Positions 20,716 to 30,422 of a stretch of DNA of 44,109 nt are shown here, piece after piece. The stretch's first letter is position 1, and the number at the start of each line of letters is the position of its first letter. Made by a program: the position numbers and the translations under genes. The notes beneath the pieces are model-generated. The model made no database searches. It worked only from the letters and a program-made list of their open reading frames with translations, and was not told the origin of the DNA. This DNA is from Prochlorothrix hollandica PCC 9006 = CALU 1027 (lineage in GTDB: Bacteria; Cyanobacteriota; Cyanobacteriia; Prochlorotrichales; Prochlorotrichaceae), in NCBI RefSeq assembly GCF_000332315.1, contig NZ_KB235936.1, forward strand, positions 315,519 through 359,627, written 5' to 3'.

Positions 20716-20918
20716 GGGATGGGAATAGCTGTTGCATGAGTCTTTTCTTGTGTTGTTTCAGTACCTCAATTTTTTGGGCTTTGAGAATTAGGCTACGGAG
20801 GGTTTCTAGTAAGGGGGGGGTCAAGGTTGGGGACGGTGCAGGGCGATCGGTGGTTGCGGCTAATTCATGGGCCGATGTTGTTGGCGGTGGCGTGAGGGAG
20901 TGGGGGGTGCCAGTGGTT
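20716..20918 (-). pseudogene. HsdS C-terminal tail remnant downstream of hsdM
   Basis: In the same frame as hsdM but after its stop, an open stretch ends with LILKAQKIEVLKQHKK, then RLMQQLFPSH and a stop. This matches the C-terminal coiled coil of HsdS (compare KIKALKQHKKGLMQQLFPS at 23920-23990). Only the last 25 or so residues are recognisable; the part nearest hsdM is Pro/Thr-rich and unrelated. It is what remains of a second hsdS or a rearranged copy. Confidence 0.6.
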
Positions 20919-20920
20919 TT

Positions 20921-22732
20921 TTAGGGCAGGGGTGGCAAGCCTAATTCAACGAGAAATTGATTGTGTTTGTCCTTGGCGGCTTCAATTTTTTGGGTTAGTG
21001 CTTCGAGTTCGGTATGGGTTGCTTGTAAATCAATTTCTGGTTCTTTTTGGGCGGTGCTAACGTAGCGGGAAATGTTGAGGTTGTAGCCCTCAGTTTCGAT
21101 TTTTGCCATGGTAACCAGGCGAGCATAACCATCTTCTTCCTTTGGACGGGATTTATAGGTTTCAAGAATTTTATTGATATCGCAAGGTCGTAGATAGTTT
21201 TGGCGTTTGCGCTTCTCAAAGTTTTTAGGAGCGCTGGCATTGATGAACAGCACATCGTCGGACTTCTTGCATTTTTTCAGGACGAGAATACAGACGGGAA
21301 TGCCGGTGGAATAAAACAGGTTAGGGGGGAGACCGATGACGGTATCAATGTGGCCATCTTTGAGGAGTTTGGTGCGGATGCGTTCTTCTGCGCCGCCCCG
21401 AAAAAGTACGCCATGGGGGAGGATGATGGCCATCACTCCATCGTCTTTGAGGTAGTGGAAACCGTGGAGCAAGAAAGCAAAGTCGGCGGCGGATTTGGGG
21501 GCGAGTCCGTAGTTTTTGAAGCGTATATCTTGGCCCAGGGTTTCTGTGGGTTCCCAGCGGTAACTAAAGGGGGGATTGGCCACGACTGCATCAAATTTTG
21601 GCATTTTGGCGGGGTTCATTTCTTTGAGCCACTCCCATTCGTTGGTGAGGCTGTCGCCATGGTAGATCTCGAATTCGGTATCTTTGACTCCGTGGAGGAG
21701 CATATTCATGCGGGCGAGGTTGTAGGTGGTGATGTTTTTTTCTTGGCCGTAAATTTTGCCGATGCCCTGGGGGCCAAGGCGATGGCGGATGTTGAGGAGG
21801 AGGGAGCCGGAGCCACAGGCAAAGTCGAGGATGGTATAGAGGTGGGTGCGGTTGCCGGTGGTAGGGTCTTGGCTGTCGAGGGTGACGATGCCGGAGAGGA
21901 TGCTAGAGATTTCTTGGGGGGTGTAGAATTCTCCTGCTTTTTTGCCGGAACCGGAGGCAAACTGCCCGATCAGGTATTCGTAGGCATCACCGAGGGTGTC
22001 GCTGTCGGTGGAAAATTCGGCGAGACCTTCGGAAATTTTCTGGATGATGGTGCAGAGTTTGGTGTTGCGGGCGGTGTAGTTTTTGCCCAGTTTTTCGGAG
22101 TTGAGGTTAATTTCGGAGAAGAGTCCGCTGAAGGTGCTGGAAAAGGATTCTTCTTCGATGTATTGGAAGCCTTTTTGTAGGGTACGGAGTAGATCGTTGT
22201 TTTGGGTGCGGGCTAGTTGGGCGATGTGGCTCCAGAGATGTTCCGGCTGAATGACATAATGCATTTTGCGGCGCATTTGTTTTTCAAAGTCGGTGGTGTC
22301 TGCTGGGTTTTGGGTGTACCACACGGCTAGGGGGGTGAGGTGAACCACCCCGTCAGGCTTCGCCTGCCACCCCTCCGAGGGAGGGGAATTTTTCCCCTCC
22401 TTTGGAAAGGCAGGGGTGGTTTTCCCCTCCTTTGGAAAGGCAGGGGTAGTTTTCCCCTCCTCTGGAGGGGTAGGGGAATTTTTCCCCTCCTCTGGAGGGG
22501 TGCCCCGCAGGGGCGGGGTGGTTGGATAGTCTGGCCCTAGTTCTTTTTGGGCGGCGGTTTCGTAGTTGTCGGAGAGGTAGCGGAGGAAGAGGAAGGAGAG
22601 CATATAGTCGCGGAAGTCGTCGGCGTTCATGGCTCCGCGCAGTTGGTCGGCGATGTCCCACAGGATCTTGCCAAGTTGTTTATGGTCTTGTTCGGTCATG
22701 GCTTTCTTATCTGTTTTGGGAATTTTGCTCAA
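20921..22732 (-). CDS. hsdM: type I restriction-modification N6-adenine methyltransferase subunit HsdM, with repeat insert
   Basis: HsdM, as an HsdM2S1 complex, methylates adenine in the sequence chosen by HsdS. The 603-residue product has the N-terminal helical domain (about 12-65), the SAM-binding motif I LDFACGSGSLLL (about 302-312) and the catalytic NPPF (about 384-387), and GEFYTPQEIS before them. Residues about 71-132 are a Pro/Gly/Lys-rich insert that relatives lack: it is a translated copy of a palindromic repeat found between and within neighbouring genes. The first ATG overlaps the PrrC-like gene; MTEQDHKQ at residue 12 is an equally good start. Whether the insert is tolerated is unknown. 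Confidence 0.9.
   Translation of the reverse strand: MSKIPKTDKKAMTEQDHKQLGKILWDIADQLRGAMNADDFRDYMLSFLFLRYLSDNYETAAQKELGPDYPTTPPLRGTPPEEGKNSPTPPEEGKTTPAFPKEGKTTPAFPKEGKNSPPSEGWQAKPDGVVHLTPLAVWYTQNPADTTDFEKQMRRKMHYVIQPEHLWSHIAQLARTQNNDLLRTLQKGFQYIEEESFSSTFSGLFSEINLNSEKLGKNYTARNTKLCTIIQKISEGLAEFSTDSDTLGDAYEYLIGQFASGSGKKAGEFYTPQEISSILSGIVTLDSQDPTTGNRTHLYTILDFACGSGSLLLNIRHRLGPQGIGKIYGQEKNITTYNLARMNMLLHGVKDTEFEIYHGDSLTNEWEWLKEMNPAKMPKFDAVVANPPFSYRWEPTETLGQDIRFKNYGLAPKSAADFAFLLHGFHYLKDDGVMAIILPHGVLFRGGAEERIRTKLLKDGHIDTVIGLPPNLFYSTGIPVCILVLKKCKKSDDVLFINASAPKNFEKRKRQNYLRPCDINKILETYKSRPKEEDGYARLVTMAKIETEGYNLNISRYVSTAQKEPEIDLQATHTELEALTQKIEAAKDKHNQFLVELGLPPLP
22337..22522. repeat. palindromic repeat cluster inside hsdM, in frame
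   Basis: A 186-bp block of CCCCTCC-type palindromes: CACCCCGTCAGGCTTCGCC, a series of TTTTCCCCTCCTTTGGAAAG and CCCCTCCTCTGGAGGGG units, and GCCCCGCAGGGGCGGGGTGG. Its length is a multiple of three and no stop arises in the hsdM frame. The same family lies at 26434-26580, 26998-27100 and 27124-27223. Confidence 0.85.
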
Positions 22733-23314
22733 GTTCAGGGAGATCGAAATGGTAACGATCTAAAAAAGCAGTTAATATTTTCTTAAATAGATCCTTTGTG
22801 TCTTCACCCATTGCCCTTGGTTCATAGAGCGAATATTGGCCATGACTCAAAAGGTTTAGAGCGCGAGCATATAAAACTTCGTCATTTATACCCTGAATAC
22901 AGGCGGAAAAGTCATCAAAGCCAAAAAAGGTGGCTGTTTTTTCTAAAATACTGCGTAACATATTAAAATGATGTGTATAAAGTCTATCTGAATCTGCTGC
23001 TTTTTTGAGTTCACTTAAAGCCACTACATGGTGAAAAAATGGCGTATCATTTGTGACTTGTAATGTGTATTTACCAAGGCTTTTTAGATAATTAAAGAAA
23101 TAACTCTTGTATTTTATACTTGCGCTTCGGAATTCATTCCAAATAACATTATAAAAGAGACTATGGTGTGAGGATATGACTACCTTTAGCCGTGATCTCC
23201 CTTGTTTGAGTAATTGTGCTAAATCACACGCAACGGCAATAGCATTGTTATCATCTAATGAAGAAATTGGATCATCAATATAAAGATATTTGACCCAAGC
23301 ATAGGATTGATGGT
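22707..23314 (-). pseudogene. PrrC-like anticodon nuclease/AAA ATPase, C-terminal part (separated by MITE)
   Basis: The second part of the gene interrupted at 23315-23417. Joined to the N-terminal part it continues as residues 165-366 of a 366-residue protein. It begins NHQSYAWVKY and carries Walker B and D-loop YIDDPISSLDD (176-186), then the switch VVISSHHSLF. The C-terminal domain has MLRSILEKTA with Arg285 and Glu289 (spaced R-x3-E) and LNLLSHG with His322. In PrrC the catalytic triad is Arg320, Glu324 and His356, with nearly the same spacing. No stop occurs across 23025-23314. On its own this part has no start. The end overlaps the hsdM start. Confidence 0.7.
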
Positions 23315-23316
23315 TA

Positions 23317-23415
23317 CAGCAACCCTAAATCAGTTGTAGGCATCTCGATGGCTGAAACCCTTGGTGCGGTGTGCCCCCTCCGGGGGCACACCACACAACC
23401 CATTTAGGACTGCTG
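23317..23415. mobile_element. 99-bp MITE with TA target duplication, inside the PrrC-like gene
   Basis: The ends are CAGCAACCCTAAAT and ATTTAGGACTGCTG (12 of 14 paired), flanked on both sides by TA (23315-23316 and 23416-23417). A TA duplication is typical of IS630/mariner-type transposition. The centre has GGTGTGCCCCC-tcc-GGGGGCACACC, and the segment CTCGATGGCTGAAACCCTTGGTG also occurs beside the element at 12235-12622. Removing the element and one TA restores an unbroken frame. Confidence 0.85.
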
Positions 23416-23417
23416 TA

Positions 23418-23908
23418 TCGATCGCAAGTTGGCAAATTGCCATGAAAATACACCAAATAAATATATTTTCTTCGCCACGAGATACTTTTATATTGTGTTG
23501 GTCTTGACGTGAAAAGGTGATTGTCCAATTTTCGTAATCGATTCTGAAATCGAAATCTGCATAACGCTCTAGATACTTAAAGATTTTTTCTTCTAGCGCC
23601 AGGTCTTTGAAGCCTGAGAAGAATTGGGAGTCGGAGTTTATTTTAAGGTGCCGATCGCTGTCTCCCTCTAAATCATTGTCCCAGGAAAATAGGTCTTCCG
23701 TAAAAGCATTAAAATAAAGTGTGTCGGCTATGCCGTTGGCTCTACGCTTACCATAATCTTTGAAGGTCATGGATAAGCGTGTTTTGCCTGTGCCGTTATA
23801 GGCGTAGAGTAAAATATAGTCTTGTCCTCCGTTATTCAGATCATCACGCAACCGTTGAACTAACCGATCCATTAATTGATAAGTATAAATTTTAGGTCTT
23901 GCGCTCAT
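23418..23908 (-). pseudogene. PrrC-like anticodon nuclease/AAA ATPase, N-terminal part (truncated by MITE)
   Basis: Residues 1-164 of the reconstructed protein. Walker A is AYNGTGKT (about 36-43) and the ABC-type signature SRGEE is at 143-147. The start ATG overlaps the hsdS stop (ATGA), indicating translational coupling with hsdS. The present frame runs on through the MITE and stops at 23330, giving a 192-residue product whose last 30 residues are MITE-derived and which lacks Walker B and the nuclease domain. PrrC-type proteins cleave the tRNA-Lys anticodon loop when the associated type I enzyme is inhibited; position inside the hsd operon supports that comparison. RloC-like or another AAA-HEPN protein is the alternative. 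Confidence 0.7.
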
Positions 23909-24308
23909 TTGCTCACCTCGTCAAGGGATGGGAATAGCTGTTGCATGAGTCCTTTTTTGTGCTGTTTTAGTGCTTTGATTTTTTGAGATTGTAGGGTGAT
24001 TAGTTCATCGAGAGAGGTGAGGCAATCAGCGATTTCTTGTTGTTCTTCGACACAAGGCAACCTAATCGTAAAATCACTTAAAACCTCTTTTGTGATTGTC
24101 TTAATTATTCCACCTGGAGCTTTTTGCCTTTCTATCTCGAACAAAAGTTGTATTGAATATGCAAAAAATATTTCTTTGATCGGTTGCAGAAATTTCTCAA
24201 AAAGTAGAAGCGTCCTATCGATATAGGCATCGTACTGTGTAATAGCAACTCTTCCGATTGAACCTTGAATCGTGATTATGACTGTGCCTTTTGGTATGAA
24301 AACACTTT
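23905..24308 (-). pseudogene. hsdS: HsdS specificity subunit, C-terminal part (cut by IS)
   Basis: Second half of the specificity subunit. Read across the joined target site it continues from the first half as KQSVFIPKGTVIITIQGSIG and contains the end of the second target-recognition domain, then the conserved coiled coil EIADCLTSLDELITLQSQKI and KALKQHKKGLMQQLFPS. The stop overlaps the start of the PrrC-like gene. No promoter or start of its own is evident, though the TTG at 24144 opens a short frame. Confidence 0.85.
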
Positions 24309-24316
24309 GTTTTGAT

Positions 24317-25575
24317 GGCTCTCTGGGAATGAGGCCGTATAGTGTATAATAGGTTACGTCTTGAGTGAAGTCAGCTTATGTTCCTTTCTTTAAATCAAAT
24401 CATTAAGATTCCTGGCTGGGAAGTATGGAATACCAACATAGAGAGTGACCGTATTACCTTTTTGCTAAGGTATTTGAACGAGATAGAGGTTTGTCATTTT
24501 TGTGGCTCGAAACAGATTTCCGTCCATAAAATCCGCAAAGTATCAGTAAGAGACTTAGAGTTTTTAGACAAGAAAACCTTTTTAGAATTAGAGAGACACC
24601 AATACTACTGCAATGAGTGTCGTAAATATTTTACTGAATCGTCCAGCGACATCGACTTTCAACGCGGAATGACAGAAAGATACAAAAATAGAATCTTTGA
24701 GAAAATTAAAAATTCAACGATTACCCATGTTGCTCAAGAAGAAGGTTTAACTTACGATCAAGTAAAAGGTATTTTAGAATCAAAATTTAATGGAAGCAAC
24801 AATCTGAATTGCAATATCAATAAAATAAGTATAGATGAGTTCAGTCACCGTAAAGGTCAGGGAAACTTTGCGACAGTGATTTGTGATTTAGAAACAGCAA
24901 ATCTCATCGAAGTGATTGACTCTCACCAACAGGATAAAATCATCGAAATCCTTATGGAGTGGCCGTTAGAGGTAAGAGAGGCTATTACAGAGGTTAGTGT
25001 AGATATGTGGGGCGGATTTACAAAAGTCATCCAAACTGTGTTCCCAAATGCACGTATTGTATATGATCGTTTTCATGTCATGAAAATCTTGAATGAAGAA
25101 CTTAATAAAATACGAAAACAGTGTAATTCGGTGCTTAAAGATCTCAAAATAAAGCATATCCGTAGCCTTATTCTAAAAAACGGAACAGATCTTAATGACG
25201 AAGAAAAAAAGCTCCTAGAAATCATCCTGAAATCCTCTGAAAGGCTAAGCAATGCCTATCAGCTAAAGGAAGATTTTCGTCAAATCTATGAAACAGATCA
25301 AGAACCTGAAGTGGCTAAAGTTAAATTAGAAGAATGGTTAGCCAAAGCATCCAAATTTTATAGTCAAGTAATCACGACAATCAAAAATCATTTTGATGGA
25401 ATCTGTAATTACTTTTATAACCGTACAACTAGCGGTAAAATGGAGGGAATTAATAACAAAATAAAGGTTATCAAGCGTCAAGCTTATGGATTCACAAACT
25501 TTGATCATCTGAGAATGAGACTCCTCATAGCCTGTTCTCATTAGTTTTACTTATCAGCCTCATTCCCAGAGAGCC
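24317..25575 (+). mobile_element. ISL3-family-like insertion sequence in hsdS
   Basis: A 1259-bp IS with 19-bp terminal inverted repeats GGCTCTCTGGGAATGAGGC (24317-24335 and 25557-25575, identical). The 8-bp sequence GTTTTGAT is directly repeated on both sides (24309-24316 and 25576-25583). It carries one transposase gene. It is distinctly AT-rich compared with the rest of the window, a sign of recent arrival from a different genome. The insertion is in the opposite orientation to hsdS. Confidence 0.95.
24378..25544 (+). CDS. ISL3-family transposase
   Basis: The 388-residue product has an N-terminal zinc-binding region (C39-x2-C42 and C78-x2-C81), an HTH-like middle (ITHVAQEEGLTYDQVKGIL), and a DDE catalytic domain: Asp in SIDEFSHRKGQ (about 153), Asp in SVDMWGGF (about 208) and Glu in GKMEGINNKIK (about 355). 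The order of the zinc finger and the RKGQ block are typical of the ISL3 family. Only 42 bp separate its start from the left inverted repeat, and 12 bp its stop from the right one, so the element is compact and appears intact. Confidence 0.9.
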   Translation: MFLSLNQIIKIPGWEVWNTNIESDRITFLLRYLNEIEVCHFCGSKQISVHKIRKVSVRDLEFLDKKTFLELERHQYYCNECRKYFTESSSDIDFQRGMTERYKNRIFEKIKNSTITHVAQEEGLTYDQVKGILESKFNGSNNLNCNINKISIDEFSHRKGQGNFATVICDLETANLIEVIDSHQQDKIIEILMEWPLEVREAITEVSVDMWGGFTKVIQTVFPNARIVYDRFHVMKILNEELNKIRKQCNSVLKDLKIKHIRSLILKNGTDLNDEEKKLLEIILKSSERLSNAYQLKEDFRQIYETDQEPEVAKVKLEEWLAKASKFYSQVITTIKNHFDGICNYFYNRTTSGKMEGINNKIKVIKRQAYGFTNFDHLRMRLLIACSH

Positions 25576-26407
25576 GTTTTGATGCTAATTTGCTTATCTT
25601 GCTTTTTGTATTTGGCTTTAGCTGAAGATCATCTCCTACATCGAAGACTTGTATAAAAGGCATACCATTCAACTCGTCATACCACTCAGGCAATCCATAA
25701 GGCTGAGGAAAGCTACCCCTGCGAAATTTAGCTAACTGAATCAAGGTATTCACCTCCCAGTCGCCTGTGTTGCGGAATTGGGGGAAGCGGAGTTGGGGCA
25801 GGGTTTGGCCTTCGGCGGGGAAGAGTTGTTGCATTAGCCCCTTTTTGTGGGTTTTGAGGGCTTCGAGTTTTTGGGTTTCGGTGGTGATGCGATCGTCTAG
25901 GGAAGTCAGACAGTCCGCAATTTTTTGCTGCTCTGGATAAGAAGGTAAAAGAGTCTTCCAAGTACGGAGGGCATTCAAGTAAAGCCTTGTTCTTGTCCCA
26001 CCCTTTTTTTGTGCAAAAGCAAACTCCTTAAAACTTTCCCCCTCATTTAACAAATAAAGTAAGAAGTTTGAATCTAGATTTACGGTTGTAAAAACAGGAT
26101 ATTCCCTGCTTACAGCTATTTTTCCACCCGTTTTATTTATGTTGAATCTGAAAGTTCCATCATCACTCATATGCCTATAGACAAAATAGCCTTCTGGCAC
26201 AATACCATACTCTCCCTCGTTCTCCAATTCCCTGTTGTCATAATAGTCCTTCTGAAATTTTAAGCCAGTTCTCGTTGAGCTATAGATTGGCAGTTTAGTA
26301 TCAGCTAAAACCCTTTCAGAGTATCCCTGAAAAAAGGGATCAAGCTCCATATACTTCCACTTTCCCGCATCCCAAAACTCAGGAAACCGCAACTTCGGCA
26401 CCATCAT
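25547..26407 (-). pseudogene. hsdS: HsdS specificity subunit, N-terminal part (cut by IS)
   Basis: HsdS chooses the DNA sequence for a type I enzyme through two target-recognition domains separated by coiled coils. This part has TRD1 (about 1-150), the first coiled coil with IADCLTSLDDRITTETQKL and KTHKKGLMQQLFPAEG (about 160-200), and the start of TRD2 (LRFPQFRNTGDW onward). The genuine sequence ends at 25576-25584; the last nine codons (RLSGNEADK) come from the IS end. Joined with 23905-24308 it gives 411 residues, a normal HsdS length. Its ATG overlaps the stop of the DUF559 gene (ATGA). Confidence 0.85.
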
Positions 26408-26973
26408 ACCCCACCCCCTTGATTCCCCAAGTTCACCACCCCGTCAGGCTTCGCCTGCCACCCCTCCAAGGGAGGGGAATTACTCAAACCTCCACCATTC
26501 CCCTCCACTGGAGGGGTGCCCCGAAGGGGCGGGGTGGTATTCCCCTCCACTGGAGAGGTGCCCCGAAGGGGCGGGGTGGTTCCCTCTCCCTCAACCGCAG
26601 TAGTCAAAGCCGGATGACCTCGCAAAAAATCCATAACACCCGTTAAATTCCGTTTCACATCACCATCCCGTAGATGAATCACCGTTAAATCCAACCCTAT
26701 CAAAAAAGCGTCTCGCTCTGCATCATACTCAGCTTTGTCATCATGGCTACTGCCATCCACCTCAATCACCACCGCTTTCTCAGCGCAATAAAAATCAACA
26801 ATATAGTTACCGATGATCTTTTGGCGATCGAAATCTAACCCAAAAAACTGCTTTCTTTTGAGTTGATTCCAGAGCAAAACCTCAGCCAGATTCCCAGCAC
26901 GCCGCAATGCTCTCGCTCGTTCTTTGAGCGCTGGATTGTAAGGGAGGGACATATATTTTTTTGTATCACGCAT
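26404..26973 (-). CDS. DUF559 endonuclease-like protein with repeat-derived C-terminus
   Basis: From ATG 26973 the product is 189 residues. Residues 1-131 form a DUF559 domain: YNPALKERARALRRAGNLAEVLLWNQLK, then NYIVDFYCAEKAVVIEVDG (the D, E and following residues match the PD-(D/E)xK-like core), then a final helix. Residues 132-189 are encoded by the palindromic repeat cluster and read TTPPLRGTSPVEG and similar. The stop overlaps the hsdS ATG, so the repeat now couples the two genes. DUF559 genes are related to Vsr-type nucleases; their place in type I operons is not established. A longer frame reaching 27129 is repeat-derived. Confidence 0.75.
   Translation of the reverse strand: MRDTKKYMSLPYNPALKERARALRRAGNLAEVLLWNQLKRKQFFGLDFDRQKIIGNYIVDFYCAEKAVVIEVDGSSHDDKAEYDAERDAFLIGLDLTVIHLRDGDVKRNLTGVMDFLRGHPALTTAVEGEGTTPPLRGTSPVEGNTTPPLRGTPPVEGNGGGLSNSPPLEGWQAKPDGVVNLGNQGGGV
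26434..26580. repeat. palindromic repeat cluster forming the 3' end of the DUF559 gene
   Basis: ACCACCCCGTCAGGCTTCGC at the left edge and three CCCCTCCACTGGAGGGGTG-type palindromes with GCCCCGAAGGGGCGGGGTGG. Read on the minus strand it gives GWQAKPDGVVNL, matching GWQAKPDGVVHL in hsdM, in the same frame. Confidence 0.85.
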
Positions 26974-26997
26974 AGTAGTACCTAATTGAACTCTATG

Positions 26998-27223
26998 AAC
27001 CACCCCGTCAGGCTTGCGCCTGCCACCCCTCCGAGGGAGGGGAATTTTAAACCCTCTAATTCCCCTCCCCTGGAGGGGTGCCCGAAGGGGCGGGGTGGTC
27101 TTACTCATTTCTAAAATCTTCTGAACCACCCCGTCAGGCTTGCGCCTGCCACCCCTCCGAGGGAAGGGAATTTTAAACCCTCTAATTCCCCTCCCTTGGA
27201 GGGGTGCCCGAAGGGCGGGGTGG
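26998..27223. repeat. two direct copies of the palindromic repeat between hsdR and the DUF559 gene
   Basis: Two nearly identical copies (26998-27100 and 27124-27223), both starting AACCACCCCGTCAGGCTTGC and ending GGGCGGGGTGGTC, followed each time by TTACTCAT. The second TTACTCAT is the end of hsdR, which suggests the copy between the genes arose by duplication that included the hsdR terminus. Confidence 0.8.
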
Positions 27224-27225
27224 TC

Positions 27226-30093
27226 TTACTCATAGACCTTTAACCCCGAAATTTCTCGCCCCTGTGCCAGTTTCTTTAATAGCGGAATCAGATCCTCCAT
27301 CAGCGCTAACTCCGCCTTAGTACGAGCCTTCCAGCCCAACTCCATCGGCGCAAACAGATCACTCAAACCATCCCCATTAAAGACCATGCGGCGCAAAATC
27401 GTATTGACAAACGTTTGTAGGGCACCAGGTTCCAGCCCGTGCTTTGTAGCCATGGCCACCAGTTCCCGACCCTGCTTTTCCGCCTTAAAGCGCTCATAAC
27501 CCGCCCGAATCGCCGCCTCATCCAACTCCTGACCCAACTCCAGGGTATTGATATAGTCCGTAATATCCTCGCGATCGTCCATAAACTTCGCATCGGACAC
27601 AATCAAACCAATCAACTCATCGCGGCTCATGGTCTGCTTGCCCGGAGCTTGCTGAGCATAGCGAGTAATCAGCCCCATAATGTAGTCATAATCAATCACC
27701 GCCGATGCAAATAACACAAACTCAAAATCCAGTTGATCCACCTGGGGATCAATTTCTTTATCCTTATCCTGCTGCTCCTTCAAGCGTTGAGCCGTTTCCA
27801 GGTAAACCCCCTTAAAGCCCTGTAATTGCTCCTGGGGTAACAGTCCCTCGATCTCCGCCTTATCTTCCGCCGTTAAATCCGTATACTGATCCAGTTGAGT
27901 CTTGCAACGCTGCACCTCCTTAAACAAATTAATAAACTGACTCCGTGCCGTATCCCCCTTCAGATTGGGGACCGCTTCCGGCTTATTTTCCAGCCCCTGG
28001 GATTCCATAAATTTCCCTAGATTTTGCACGGCTGTGGCCAGCGTCCCAATCACCACCGGGGCTTTGTCCACCAACCAAATTTTCTTGGCTTGTTCCCTGG
28101 ACTGCCCAGAAAACAGGGCGATCGCCTCATCCACTGCATCCCCCTGCTGGCGGAAATCGACAATATTGCCATAGGGCTTCGTATCATTAAGGACGCGATT
28201 GGTGCGGGAAAATGCCTGAATTAACCCATGATATCTCAATTTTTTATCAACATAGAGGGTATTGAGGTATTTAGAATCGAAGCCCGTCAGTAACATATCC
28301 ACCACGATCGTAATATCAATTTTCTGGGTATAGGGTAAGTCACTGTTAGGATATTGCTGATCCTTAATTCGCTTTTGTACATCCTGATAGTAAAGGTCAA
28401 AATTGCTAACACTATGGTTAGTGCCATAATGGGCATTATAATCGGCAATAATGACCTCTAAAGCAGCCTTTTTTTGCTTTGGCTCCTGTCTATTATCAGC
28501 CTTTTCCTGGGGCAAATCTTCCTGCATTTGCTGAGAATCCCTGTTTCCTTCCGCAGGAGGCGAAAAGACACAGGCAATATTGAGAGGTACAAAATCCCCC
28601 CCTTGTTTTTGCTTCTTAGTCTGGATTTTTTTGAATAAATGATAATAGTCGATCGCATCATTAATGGACGCAGTGGCCAGCAGTGCATTAAACTTGCGCC
28701 CCGCAGTAGCATCATCATGCTTGGCTAAAATTGCTTCAATAACTGCTTTCTTGGCAAGAGCTTCCCCCGGTTGGGGTGGCTTTTGGCCCTTCGGTTTGTA
28801 ATAATCTACATGGAAGCGTAACACATTGCGATCTTCAATGGCGTGGGTGATGGTATAGGGGGGAAATTGCTGCTCAAAAATAGATTCAGTGGTTACATAG
28901 GAAGCCTCCTGGCCTTCGATCTGTTGGTATCGAGCATTGCACTCGAAGATGGGCGTGCCCGTGAAGCCAAAAAGTTGGGCATTGGGGAAAAATTCCTTAA
29001 TCGCTTGATGGTTCTCACCAAATTGCGATCGATGACATTCATCAAAAATAAAAACTATCCGTTGCTTGCGGAGGGGTTCCAGGCGTTTTTTATAGTTGCG
29101 CTTATGATTACCATCCAACGCAAGACCTAGCTTCTGAATCGTGGTCACAATGACTTTATCTGCATAGTCATCGGACAGCAGCCGCCTCACCAACGTTTCA
29201 GTATTGGTATTTTCCTCAACACAACTCTCCTGAAAGCGGTTGAACTCTTCCCGTGTTTGGCGATCGAGGTCTTTGCGATCGACCACAAACAAGCATTTAT
29301 CAATGTCAGGGTTATCCTTTAGCAAAGTGGATGCTTTGAAGGAGGTTAGGGTTTTACCGCTGCCCGTAGTATGCCAGATGTAGCCGTTGCCAATGCCACG
29401 GTGAATACATTCCACGATCGCCTTGACCGCATAAATTTGATAGGGGCGCATGATCATGATTTTTTGTTCACTTGCCACTAGCACCATATAGCGACTAATC
29501 ATCTCGCCTAGATCACACTTGGCAAGGAACCTGTCAGCAAAATCATTAAGATGGGTAATTTTCTGATTGTCAACATCTGCAAACTGATAAATTGGCAAAA
29601 ACCGCTCATCGACATTAAAACCAAAGTGGCGGTCATTGTTGTTGGCAAAATACCAAGTATCACTGCGGTTACTGACGATAAATAACTGAATAAAACAGAG
29701 CAAAGTCCTGCCGTAGCCATTGCCTGGATCATTTTTATAATCGACGATCTGCTGCATGGCACGACGCGGGCTGATGGTCAGGGTTTTTAGCTCGATCTGT
29801 ACCACAGGCACACCATTGATCAGCAAAATCACATCATAGCGATGGAAACTGCTGTCAGTATTGATACGAAGCTGGTTAACGACCTCAAAATTGTTTTTAC
29901 ACCACTGCTTGATATTAACCAAAGTATAAAAAAGTGGCGTACCATCATCCCGCTCAAAGCTATTGCGCTCCCGCAAATGTTGAGCATTGATAAAGATATC
30001 TGGATTAATAATCGACTCCAGCAGGCGAGAAAATTCGTTATCAGTTAGGCGAACACGGTTGAGTACCTCAAACTTTTCCCGAAAGTTTTGCTC
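27226..30093 (-). pseudogene. hsdR: HsdR type I restriction subunit, 5' end missing
   Basis: HsdR adds ATP-driven translocation and DNA cleavage to the type I complex; this one is of the EcoR124 (type IC) kind. The nuclease residues are present (RYDVILLINGVPVVQIELK, D and E-x-K), as are helicase motifs GSGKTLTS, FIFDECHRSQ, FTGTPIF and QAFSRTNR. The open frame runs back from the TTG at 29976 through 39 more codons (EQNFREKFEVLNRVRL and on) to 30093, where a TGA is formed across the junction with the element at 30095. By comparison with EcoR124 HsdR about 60-65 N-terminal residues are missing. No promoter or proper start is left, so it is probably not made at full function. Confidence 0.85.
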
Positions 30094-30173
30094 TCAGGGT
30101 AATCGCATCTAATTTAGTATAAATTGTACTTGACAAGAAGTAAGTGTTTGATGATGGGTCATTATCATCATTC

Positions 30174-30258
30174 GGGTTTCCGCTTAAAGCGGGACAAGAT
30201 TAACGGGACAGTGGGGCGCTCCGCGCCCCACTGTCCCGGCTTAAATTGATAGCCCATC
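30174..30258. repeat. dispersed hairpin repeat, copy 3 of 3
   Basis: The centre GGGACAGTGGGGCGC-tcc-GCGCCCCACTGTCCC is a perfect 15-bp stem. The flanks ATGATGGG (30151-30158) and CCCATCAT (30253-30260) extend the symmetry. It is the best preserved of three copies in the window. Confidence 0.85.
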
Positions 30259-30422
30259 ATTCATCTCTGCTCCTCCTCTGAAGGGGAACTCAGGGGTTCC
30301 GACTATTTTGCAGGGGGGGGAGTGAAGACTGACTTGGTCATTGGTAATCATGGATACAGAGCGAGTCCTAAAAAACGGGGTGAATGAGAGGTAGTTATAC
30401 TGATTAGAGTGGAGAAGACACT

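What the first reader, a model, noticed from the sequence alone, without database searches (positions are those of the whole stretch)
22707..23908. PrrC-like anticodon nuclease embedded in a type I restriction operon, now broken
Seen: on the minus strand, between hsdS and hsdM, an AAA/ABC-type ATPase with Walker A AYNGTGKT, signature SRGEE, Walker B YIDDP and a C-terminal domain with R285-x3-E289 and H322. Known: E. coli PrrC, encoded in a type I locus, has ATPase motifs and an Arg320-Glu324-His356 triad; its activity on tRNA-Lys is unleashed when the restriction enzyme is blocked. The spacing here (4 and 33) nearly equals 4 and 32. Inference: this is a cyanobacterial relative, in a different gene order (R, DUF559, S, ATPase, M). 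Its loss may have been favoured once restriction decayed, because a free nuclease would be toxic.
Basis: partly seen in the sequence, partly recalled or inferred. Interest (0 to 1): 0.85.

Follow-up and report, generated by a model that had tools for sequence, protein, structure and literature searches.

The report
Broken PrrC phage-defence tRNA cutter
This cyanobacterium carries the remains of PrrC, a known tRNA-cutting phage-defence enzyme kept inside a restriction operon; a small mobile element has cut its gene in two, and the same operon is intact in many other bacteria, so the find is a recognisable but ordinary relic.

Summary
Window 22707-23908 (-) is a PrrC gene between hsdS and hsdM, split by a 103-bp MITE (23315-23417; at least 40 near-identical copies in the genome). 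Searched apart, both halves match the PADLOC PrrC model strongly (1.7e-60, 4.8e-73). Against a retrieved 396-aa E. coli PrrC, the C half carries the Arg-Glu-His catalytic triad exactly at R320/E324/H356, and the N half carries Walker A and the PrrC box; RloC-like proteins score far lower. The gene is a member of PrrC, not merely PrrC-like. The 'different gene order' is not special: PrrC splits into two deep lineages, M-S-PrrC-R (the E. coli prototype) and R-S-PrrC-M (this gene; hundreds of relatives). The lineages also differ in the tRNA-recognition segment, so the tRNA target of this lineage is unproven. Intact copies exist in other cyanobacteria in R-S-PrrC-M operons. The whole window operon has decayed: hsdR has lost its start, hsdS holds a high-copy insertion sequence, hsdM carries a repeat insert. 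The idea that prrC loss was favoured because a free nuclease is toxic is not supported: other loci keep prrC open beside apparently broken hsd genes.

The parts
27226..30093 (-). hsdR (type IC-like restriction/translocase subunit); about 50 N-terminal residues and the start codon are missing, with a stop just upstream
   Evidence: PADLOC REase_I 1070 bits; homologues align only from residue ~48-56 onward, at 71-75% identity for most; high-copy repeats lie upstream
26404..27129 (-). DUF559 gene (PF04480) with repeat-rich ends, between hsdR and hsdS
   Evidence: Pfam 2e-28
25577..26407 (-). hsdS, first part
   Evidence: Methylase_S and PADLOC Specificity_I 3.4e-56
24318..25576 (+). insertion sequence (transposase ORF 24378-25544, ISL3-like by eye) inside hsdS; terminal repeats GGCTCTCTGGGAATGAGGC, 8-bp target duplication TTTTGATG (24310-24317 and 25577-25584)
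   Evidence: about nine near-complete copies at ~100% identity plus many fragments in the genome; the family name ISL3 is my reading of the transposase sequence and was not tested by a search
23905..24309 (-). hsdS, last part; its stop overlaps the prrC start (ATGA)
   Evidence: tblastn with homologous HsdS; sequence
23418..23908 (-). prrC, N-terminal half: Walker A AYNGTGKT, PrrC box NAFTEDLFSWDNDL, ABC signature SRGEE
   Evidence: PADLOC PrrC 1.7e-60; alignment with E. coli PrrC
23315..23417 (.). 103-bp MITE splitting prrC (ends TACAGCA...TGCTGTA; TA target)
   Evidence: at least 40 matches, mostly 97-98% identical, in the genome; shared ends across copies
22707..23314 (-). prrC, C-terminal half: Walker B/D-loop YIDDPISSLD, linchpin His, recognition segment NDTPFFHHV, catalytic R/E/H
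   Evidence: PADLOC PrrC 4.8e-73; alignments; AlphaFold model pLDDT 78
20921..22699 (-). hsdM with an in-frame repeat-rich insert of about 57 residues (roughly 22330-22530)
   Evidence: TIGR00497 1.4e-110; 65-68% identity to homologues with a gap at the insert
20717..20815 (-). fragment of the C-terminal end of a second hsdS, downstream of hsdM
   Evidence: tblastn with HsdS of several relatives

Best explanation
The gene is a pseudogene of PrrC, the latent anticodon nuclease that guards a type I restriction enzyme. In its intact relatives the ABC-type ATPase half holds the protein silent while bound to the Hsd complex; when a phage blocks restriction, the C-terminal ribonuclease (Arg-Glu-His) is released, cuts a host tRNA in its anticodon loop and stops translation, so that the phage cannot multiply. 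This copy belongs to the R-S-PrrC-M lineage, probably reached this cyanobacterium by horizontal transfer, and was put out of action when a MITE inserted between the ABC signature and Walker B motifs. The rest of the operon has decayed too. Shown here: membership, motifs, operon setting, the insertions, and the decay. Inferred from the E. coli system: silencing by Hsd, the trigger, and tRNA cleavage. Not known: which tRNA this lineage cuts.
For: PADLOC PrrC on both halves, consecutive in the profile. E. coli PrrC scores 489 bits on the same model, RloC-like (PDC-S06) proteins only 41-48. The triad aligns with R320/E324/H356 and is near-invariant in 34-40 relatives. The PrrC box is present in nearly all relatives that cover it. 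The R-S-PrrC-M order is compatible with almost all of 87 loci and is found in intact cyanobacterial operons L148 and L151. An AlphaFold model of a full-length relative gives an SMC/Rad50-type ATPase head plus a helical C-terminal domain with the triad on or next to its helices. Breakage: MITE, IS in hsdS, hsdR start lost.
Against: Pfam AAA_13 stays below its curated cut-off for the separate halves (31 against 36 bits). No solved structure matches the C-terminal domain by sequence or fold, so the HEPN assignment rests on the literature and the motif. The tRNA-recognition segment differs from the E. coli one. Horizontal transfer is inferred from nearest relatives and scattered cyanobacterial placement; the window's exact place in the tree is weakly supported.
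Confidence: 0.95

Rival explanations
1. It is an RloC-type or other ABC-ATPase/HEPN protein rather than PrrC.
For: RloC shares the ATPase motifs and triad (PMC2610378); weak hits to PDC-S06 models.
Against: RloC is 658-897 aa with a zinc-hook coiled-coil insert and is rarely linked to type I loci (PMC2610378); this gene is about 370 aa, has the PrrC box, and scores more than 200 bits per half on PrrC against at most 28.5 on PDC-S06 (control).
Confidence: 0.02
2. The decay of prrC was selected because, with restriction gone, a free nuclease would harm the cell.
For: hsdR and hsdS are also broken here; overproduced PrrC is lethal in E. coli (PMC3014915).
Against: Loci L034, L035, L150 and L152 keep prrC open beside apparently frameshifted hsdR, hsdM or hsdS; only one other locus has prrC broken with an intact hsd set (L082). 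Free E. coli PrrC is very labile (PMC3014915). MITE and IS are both high-copy and young, so their order cannot be read. Some frameshifts may be assembly errors.
Confidence: 0.15
3. The split halves still make a working two-piece protein or a useful truncated ATPase.
For: Both halves lack other stops or frameshifts; the N-terminal ORF is 192 aa.
Against: The C half has no listed start near its beginning (first ORF start is GTG at 23024, after Walker B) and the N piece lacks Walker B; no precedent found.
Confidence: 0.03

Closest known systems
E. coli PrrC / EcoprrI (tRNA-Lys anticodon nuclease in a type IC locus)
   Same: Domain layout, Walker motifs, PrrC box, Arg-Glu-His triad, location directly after hsdS in a type I operon
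   Different: Order R-S-PrrC-M instead of M-S-PrrC-R; about 32% identical in the C half; recognition segment NDTPFFHHV instead of GDSNKSFSYHL; this copy is broken
R-S-PrrC-M lineage (e.g. E. coli chromosome L036, IncC plasmid L033, Synechococcus elongatus plasmid L031, Samsonia L056, Comamonas L040)
   Same: Gene order, recognition segment, 52-74% identity in the C half
   Different: Those operons are mostly intact; here there is also a DUF559 gene between hsdR and hsdS
RloC
   Same: ABC ATPase plus the same type of catalytic triad (PMC2610378)
   Different: Twice the size, zinc-hook insert, rarely in hsd loci, no PrrC box

Membership tests
PrrC | Profile match to PrrC along the whole length | tested here: met
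   PDLC02360, profile positions 20-164 and 165-355 of 372
PrrC | Catalytic Arg-x3-Glu ... His triad at R320/E324/H356 | tested here: met
   Alignment with the 396-aa E. coli protein
PrrC | PrrC box in the N-domain (PMC2610378, PMC3014915) | tested here: met
   NAFTEDLFSWDNDL against NAFTEDLFYWDNDL in E. coli; I took this shared stretch as the box because the passages read do not print its letters
[quoted passage not shown]
PrrC | Embedded in a type I R-M operon | tested here: met
   hsdR, hsdS, hsdM on the same strand
PrrC | tRNA-Lys recognition segment (E. coli residues 284-303) | tested here: not met
   NDTPFFHHV here against GDSNKSFSYHL; only a subset of PrrC proteins has the E. coli form (PMC3014915), so this defines the E. 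coli-like subset and not the family
PrrC | Anticodon nuclease activity, silenced by the Hsd complex | not testable with these tools
   Needs an experiment; this copy is a pseudogene
RloC | 658-897 aa with zinc-hook coiled coil | tested here: not met
   About 370 aa in relatives, no insert
HEPN superfamily | Rx4-6H motif in an all-helical domain | tested here: inconclusive
   R-x6-H (RALNLLSH) conserved and the domain is helical in the models, but no solved HEPN structure was matched

The most novel reading that the evidence does not exclude
PrrC consists of two ancient lineages, each locked to its own operon order (M-S-PrrC-R or R-S-PrrC-M) and its own tRNA-recognition segment; the second lineage, to which this relic belongs, may cut a different tRNA or respond to a different anti-restriction signal than the E. 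coli prototype.
Probability: 0.35. Interest if true: 0.5.

Novelty: new member of a known kind. Interest (0 to 1): 0.28.

Why it matters
The locus itself is a relic. What may be of use is the comparison it prompted: gene order, tree and recognition segment all divide PrrC into two lineages, and intact members of the second one are now listed, cyanobacterial ones included, which makes the question of their tRNA target directly testable.

Tried and rejected
Searches of solved structures by sequence found no relative (the ATP synthase gamma hits are probably chance). Fold search of the C piece gave only the Walker B part of SMC/Rad50 heads. No PrrC was found in the phage collection with the Enterococcus protein as query. 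RloC was considered and rejected. Two PrrC papers (PMC3261736, PMC1950546) are not held. Other literature searches found no paper on cyanobacterial PrrC, judged by title and abstract and within the open-licence library only.

Full report
What is there. On the minus strand the window carries hsdR, a DUF559 gene, hsdS, an AAA/ABC ATPase and hsdM in that order. The ATPase gene starts on the hsdS stop codon (ATGA) and ends a few bases before hsdM. It is split at 23315-23417 by a 103-bp element with terminal inverted repeats, of which the genome holds at least 40 matches including this one, mostly 97-98% identical (40 of 670 first-look candidates were scored). The element brings stops and a frameshift, so no full protein can be made.

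Identity. The halves were searched apart. Both match the PADLOC PrrC model, in consecutive parts of the profile. Pfam AAA_13 hits are below its cut-off and NCBIfam has nothing of use for this gene. I retrieved a 396-aa E. coli PrrC from an IncY plasmid (NZ_CP116245, locus L039), annotated as anticodon nuclease in an hsdM-hsdS-prrC-hsdR operon, with D287, R320, E324 and H356 at the published places. Aligned to it, the window C piece has R121, E125 and H158 at the three catalytic positions, and the N piece has Walker A and the stretch NAFTEDLFxWDNDL, which I take to be the PrrC box. As controls, E. coli PrrC scores 489 bits on the model, and fragments of two RloC-like proteins 41-48 bits while they prefer other models. 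The gene is a PrrC.

Relatives and gene order. A scan of species genomes found 451 relatives of the C half; the 80 best, none of them cyanobacterial by title, are 56-73% identical, led by beta- and gammaproteobacteria. The operon order in 87 loci is R-S-PrrC-M wherever enough sequence is held, apart from a few in which hsdS follows hsdM or was not detected. The same order is in E. coli chromosomes and plasmids, Methylomonas, Prosthecochloris and a Synechococcus elongatus plasmid. In contrast, all nine loci examined of the prototype group have M-S-PrrC-R (L038, L039, L149, L153-L157, L159). The two sets are separated by a fully supported long branch, for those members that were put in the tree, and they differ in the recognition segment: (D/E)TPFFHHVA against a form ending FSYHL (one of the seven prototype-group proteins checked did not match the pattern used). 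A review held here notes that this segment varies among PrrC proteins and that substrates may vary with it (PMC3014915), so the division may be partly known; I did not see the gene-order correlation stated in what I read.

Cyanobacteria. The host is a cyanobacterium: four PF00124 proteins. PrrC is uncommon in its class: 6 of 390 sampled genomes, this one included. Loci L148 and L151 hold intact R-S-PrrC-M operons; L150 and L152 have open prrC but apparently frameshifted hsdR or hsdS; L149 has the M-S-PrrC-R order. These fall in several places in the tree, which points to repeated horizontal gain; the window copy groups weakly with proteobacterial ones.

Structure. AlphaFold models of the window C piece (pLDDT 78) and of an intact relative from Samsonia (pLDDT 81) were made from relatives' alignments. 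The full-length model matches SMC, Rad50 and Septu/retron ATPase heads. The C-terminal domain is helical, with R and E on one helix and H at the end of another, in keeping with the published HEPN assignment (PMC3710099), but no solved HEPN structure was matched among the hits shown.

Mechanism. From the E. coli system (PMC3014915, PMC2610378): PrrC is held latent by EcoprrI; the T4 peptide Stp, which blocks restriction, releases it; [quoted passage not shown] T4 answers with Pnk and RNA ligase 1. That the intact relatives of this lineage work in the same way is inference from shared motifs and shared operon setting. The target tRNA is the weakest link, because the segment that reads it in E. 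coli is not conserved here.

Decay. hsdS holds a high-copy insertion sequence with an 8-bp target duplication. hsdR lacks about 50 N-terminal residues and any usual start upstream of TTG 29976, with repeats upstream. hsdM has an in-frame repeat insert, and a second hsdS fragment lies downstream. The halves of prrC carry no other lesion, which suggests the MITE arrived recently. Whether hsdS or prrC broke first cannot be told. Among related loci, open prrC occurs beside apparently broken hsd genes (L034, L035, L150, L152), so loss of prrC is not a necessary sequel to loss of restriction, with the caveat that some frameshifts may be assembly errors.

Verdict. A correct and well-spotted observation of a known kind of gene, in its usual setting, as a pseudogene. 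The interest lies mainly in the comparison of the two PrrC lineages.

Noticed in passing
window 23315-23417 and L001-L008: A 103-bp MITE family with TACAGCA...TGCTGTA ends; 670 first-look candidates in the genome, at least 40 near-identical. Its mobilising transposase was not sought.
   Followed up: partly
window 30095-30350: An ~82-bp palindromic repeat with dozens of copies, and a ~180-bp stretch repeated at two contig ends, just upstream of the truncated hsdR.
   Followed up: partly
window 22330-22530 and 26404-27129: Repeat peptides of the type TPPLRGTPPEEG inserted in frame in hsdM and in the DUF559 gene.
   Followed up: no
window 20717-20815: Fragment of the end of a second hsdS downstream of hsdM.
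   Followed up: no
L120-L126: Seven IMG/VR viral contigs carry prrC; six show hsdR, hsdS, prrC and hsdM in the R-S-PrrC-M order, and in L124 only prrC and hsdM lie in the stretch held. Possibly prophages or satellites.
   Followed up: no
L033 2445-6232; L032 5180-6184: Extra genes between hsdR and hsdS in PrrC operons: TrlF-like ATPase plus RNA-binding protein in an IncC plasmid, a PDDEXK nuclease in Methylomonas, DUF559 in the window.
   Followed up: no
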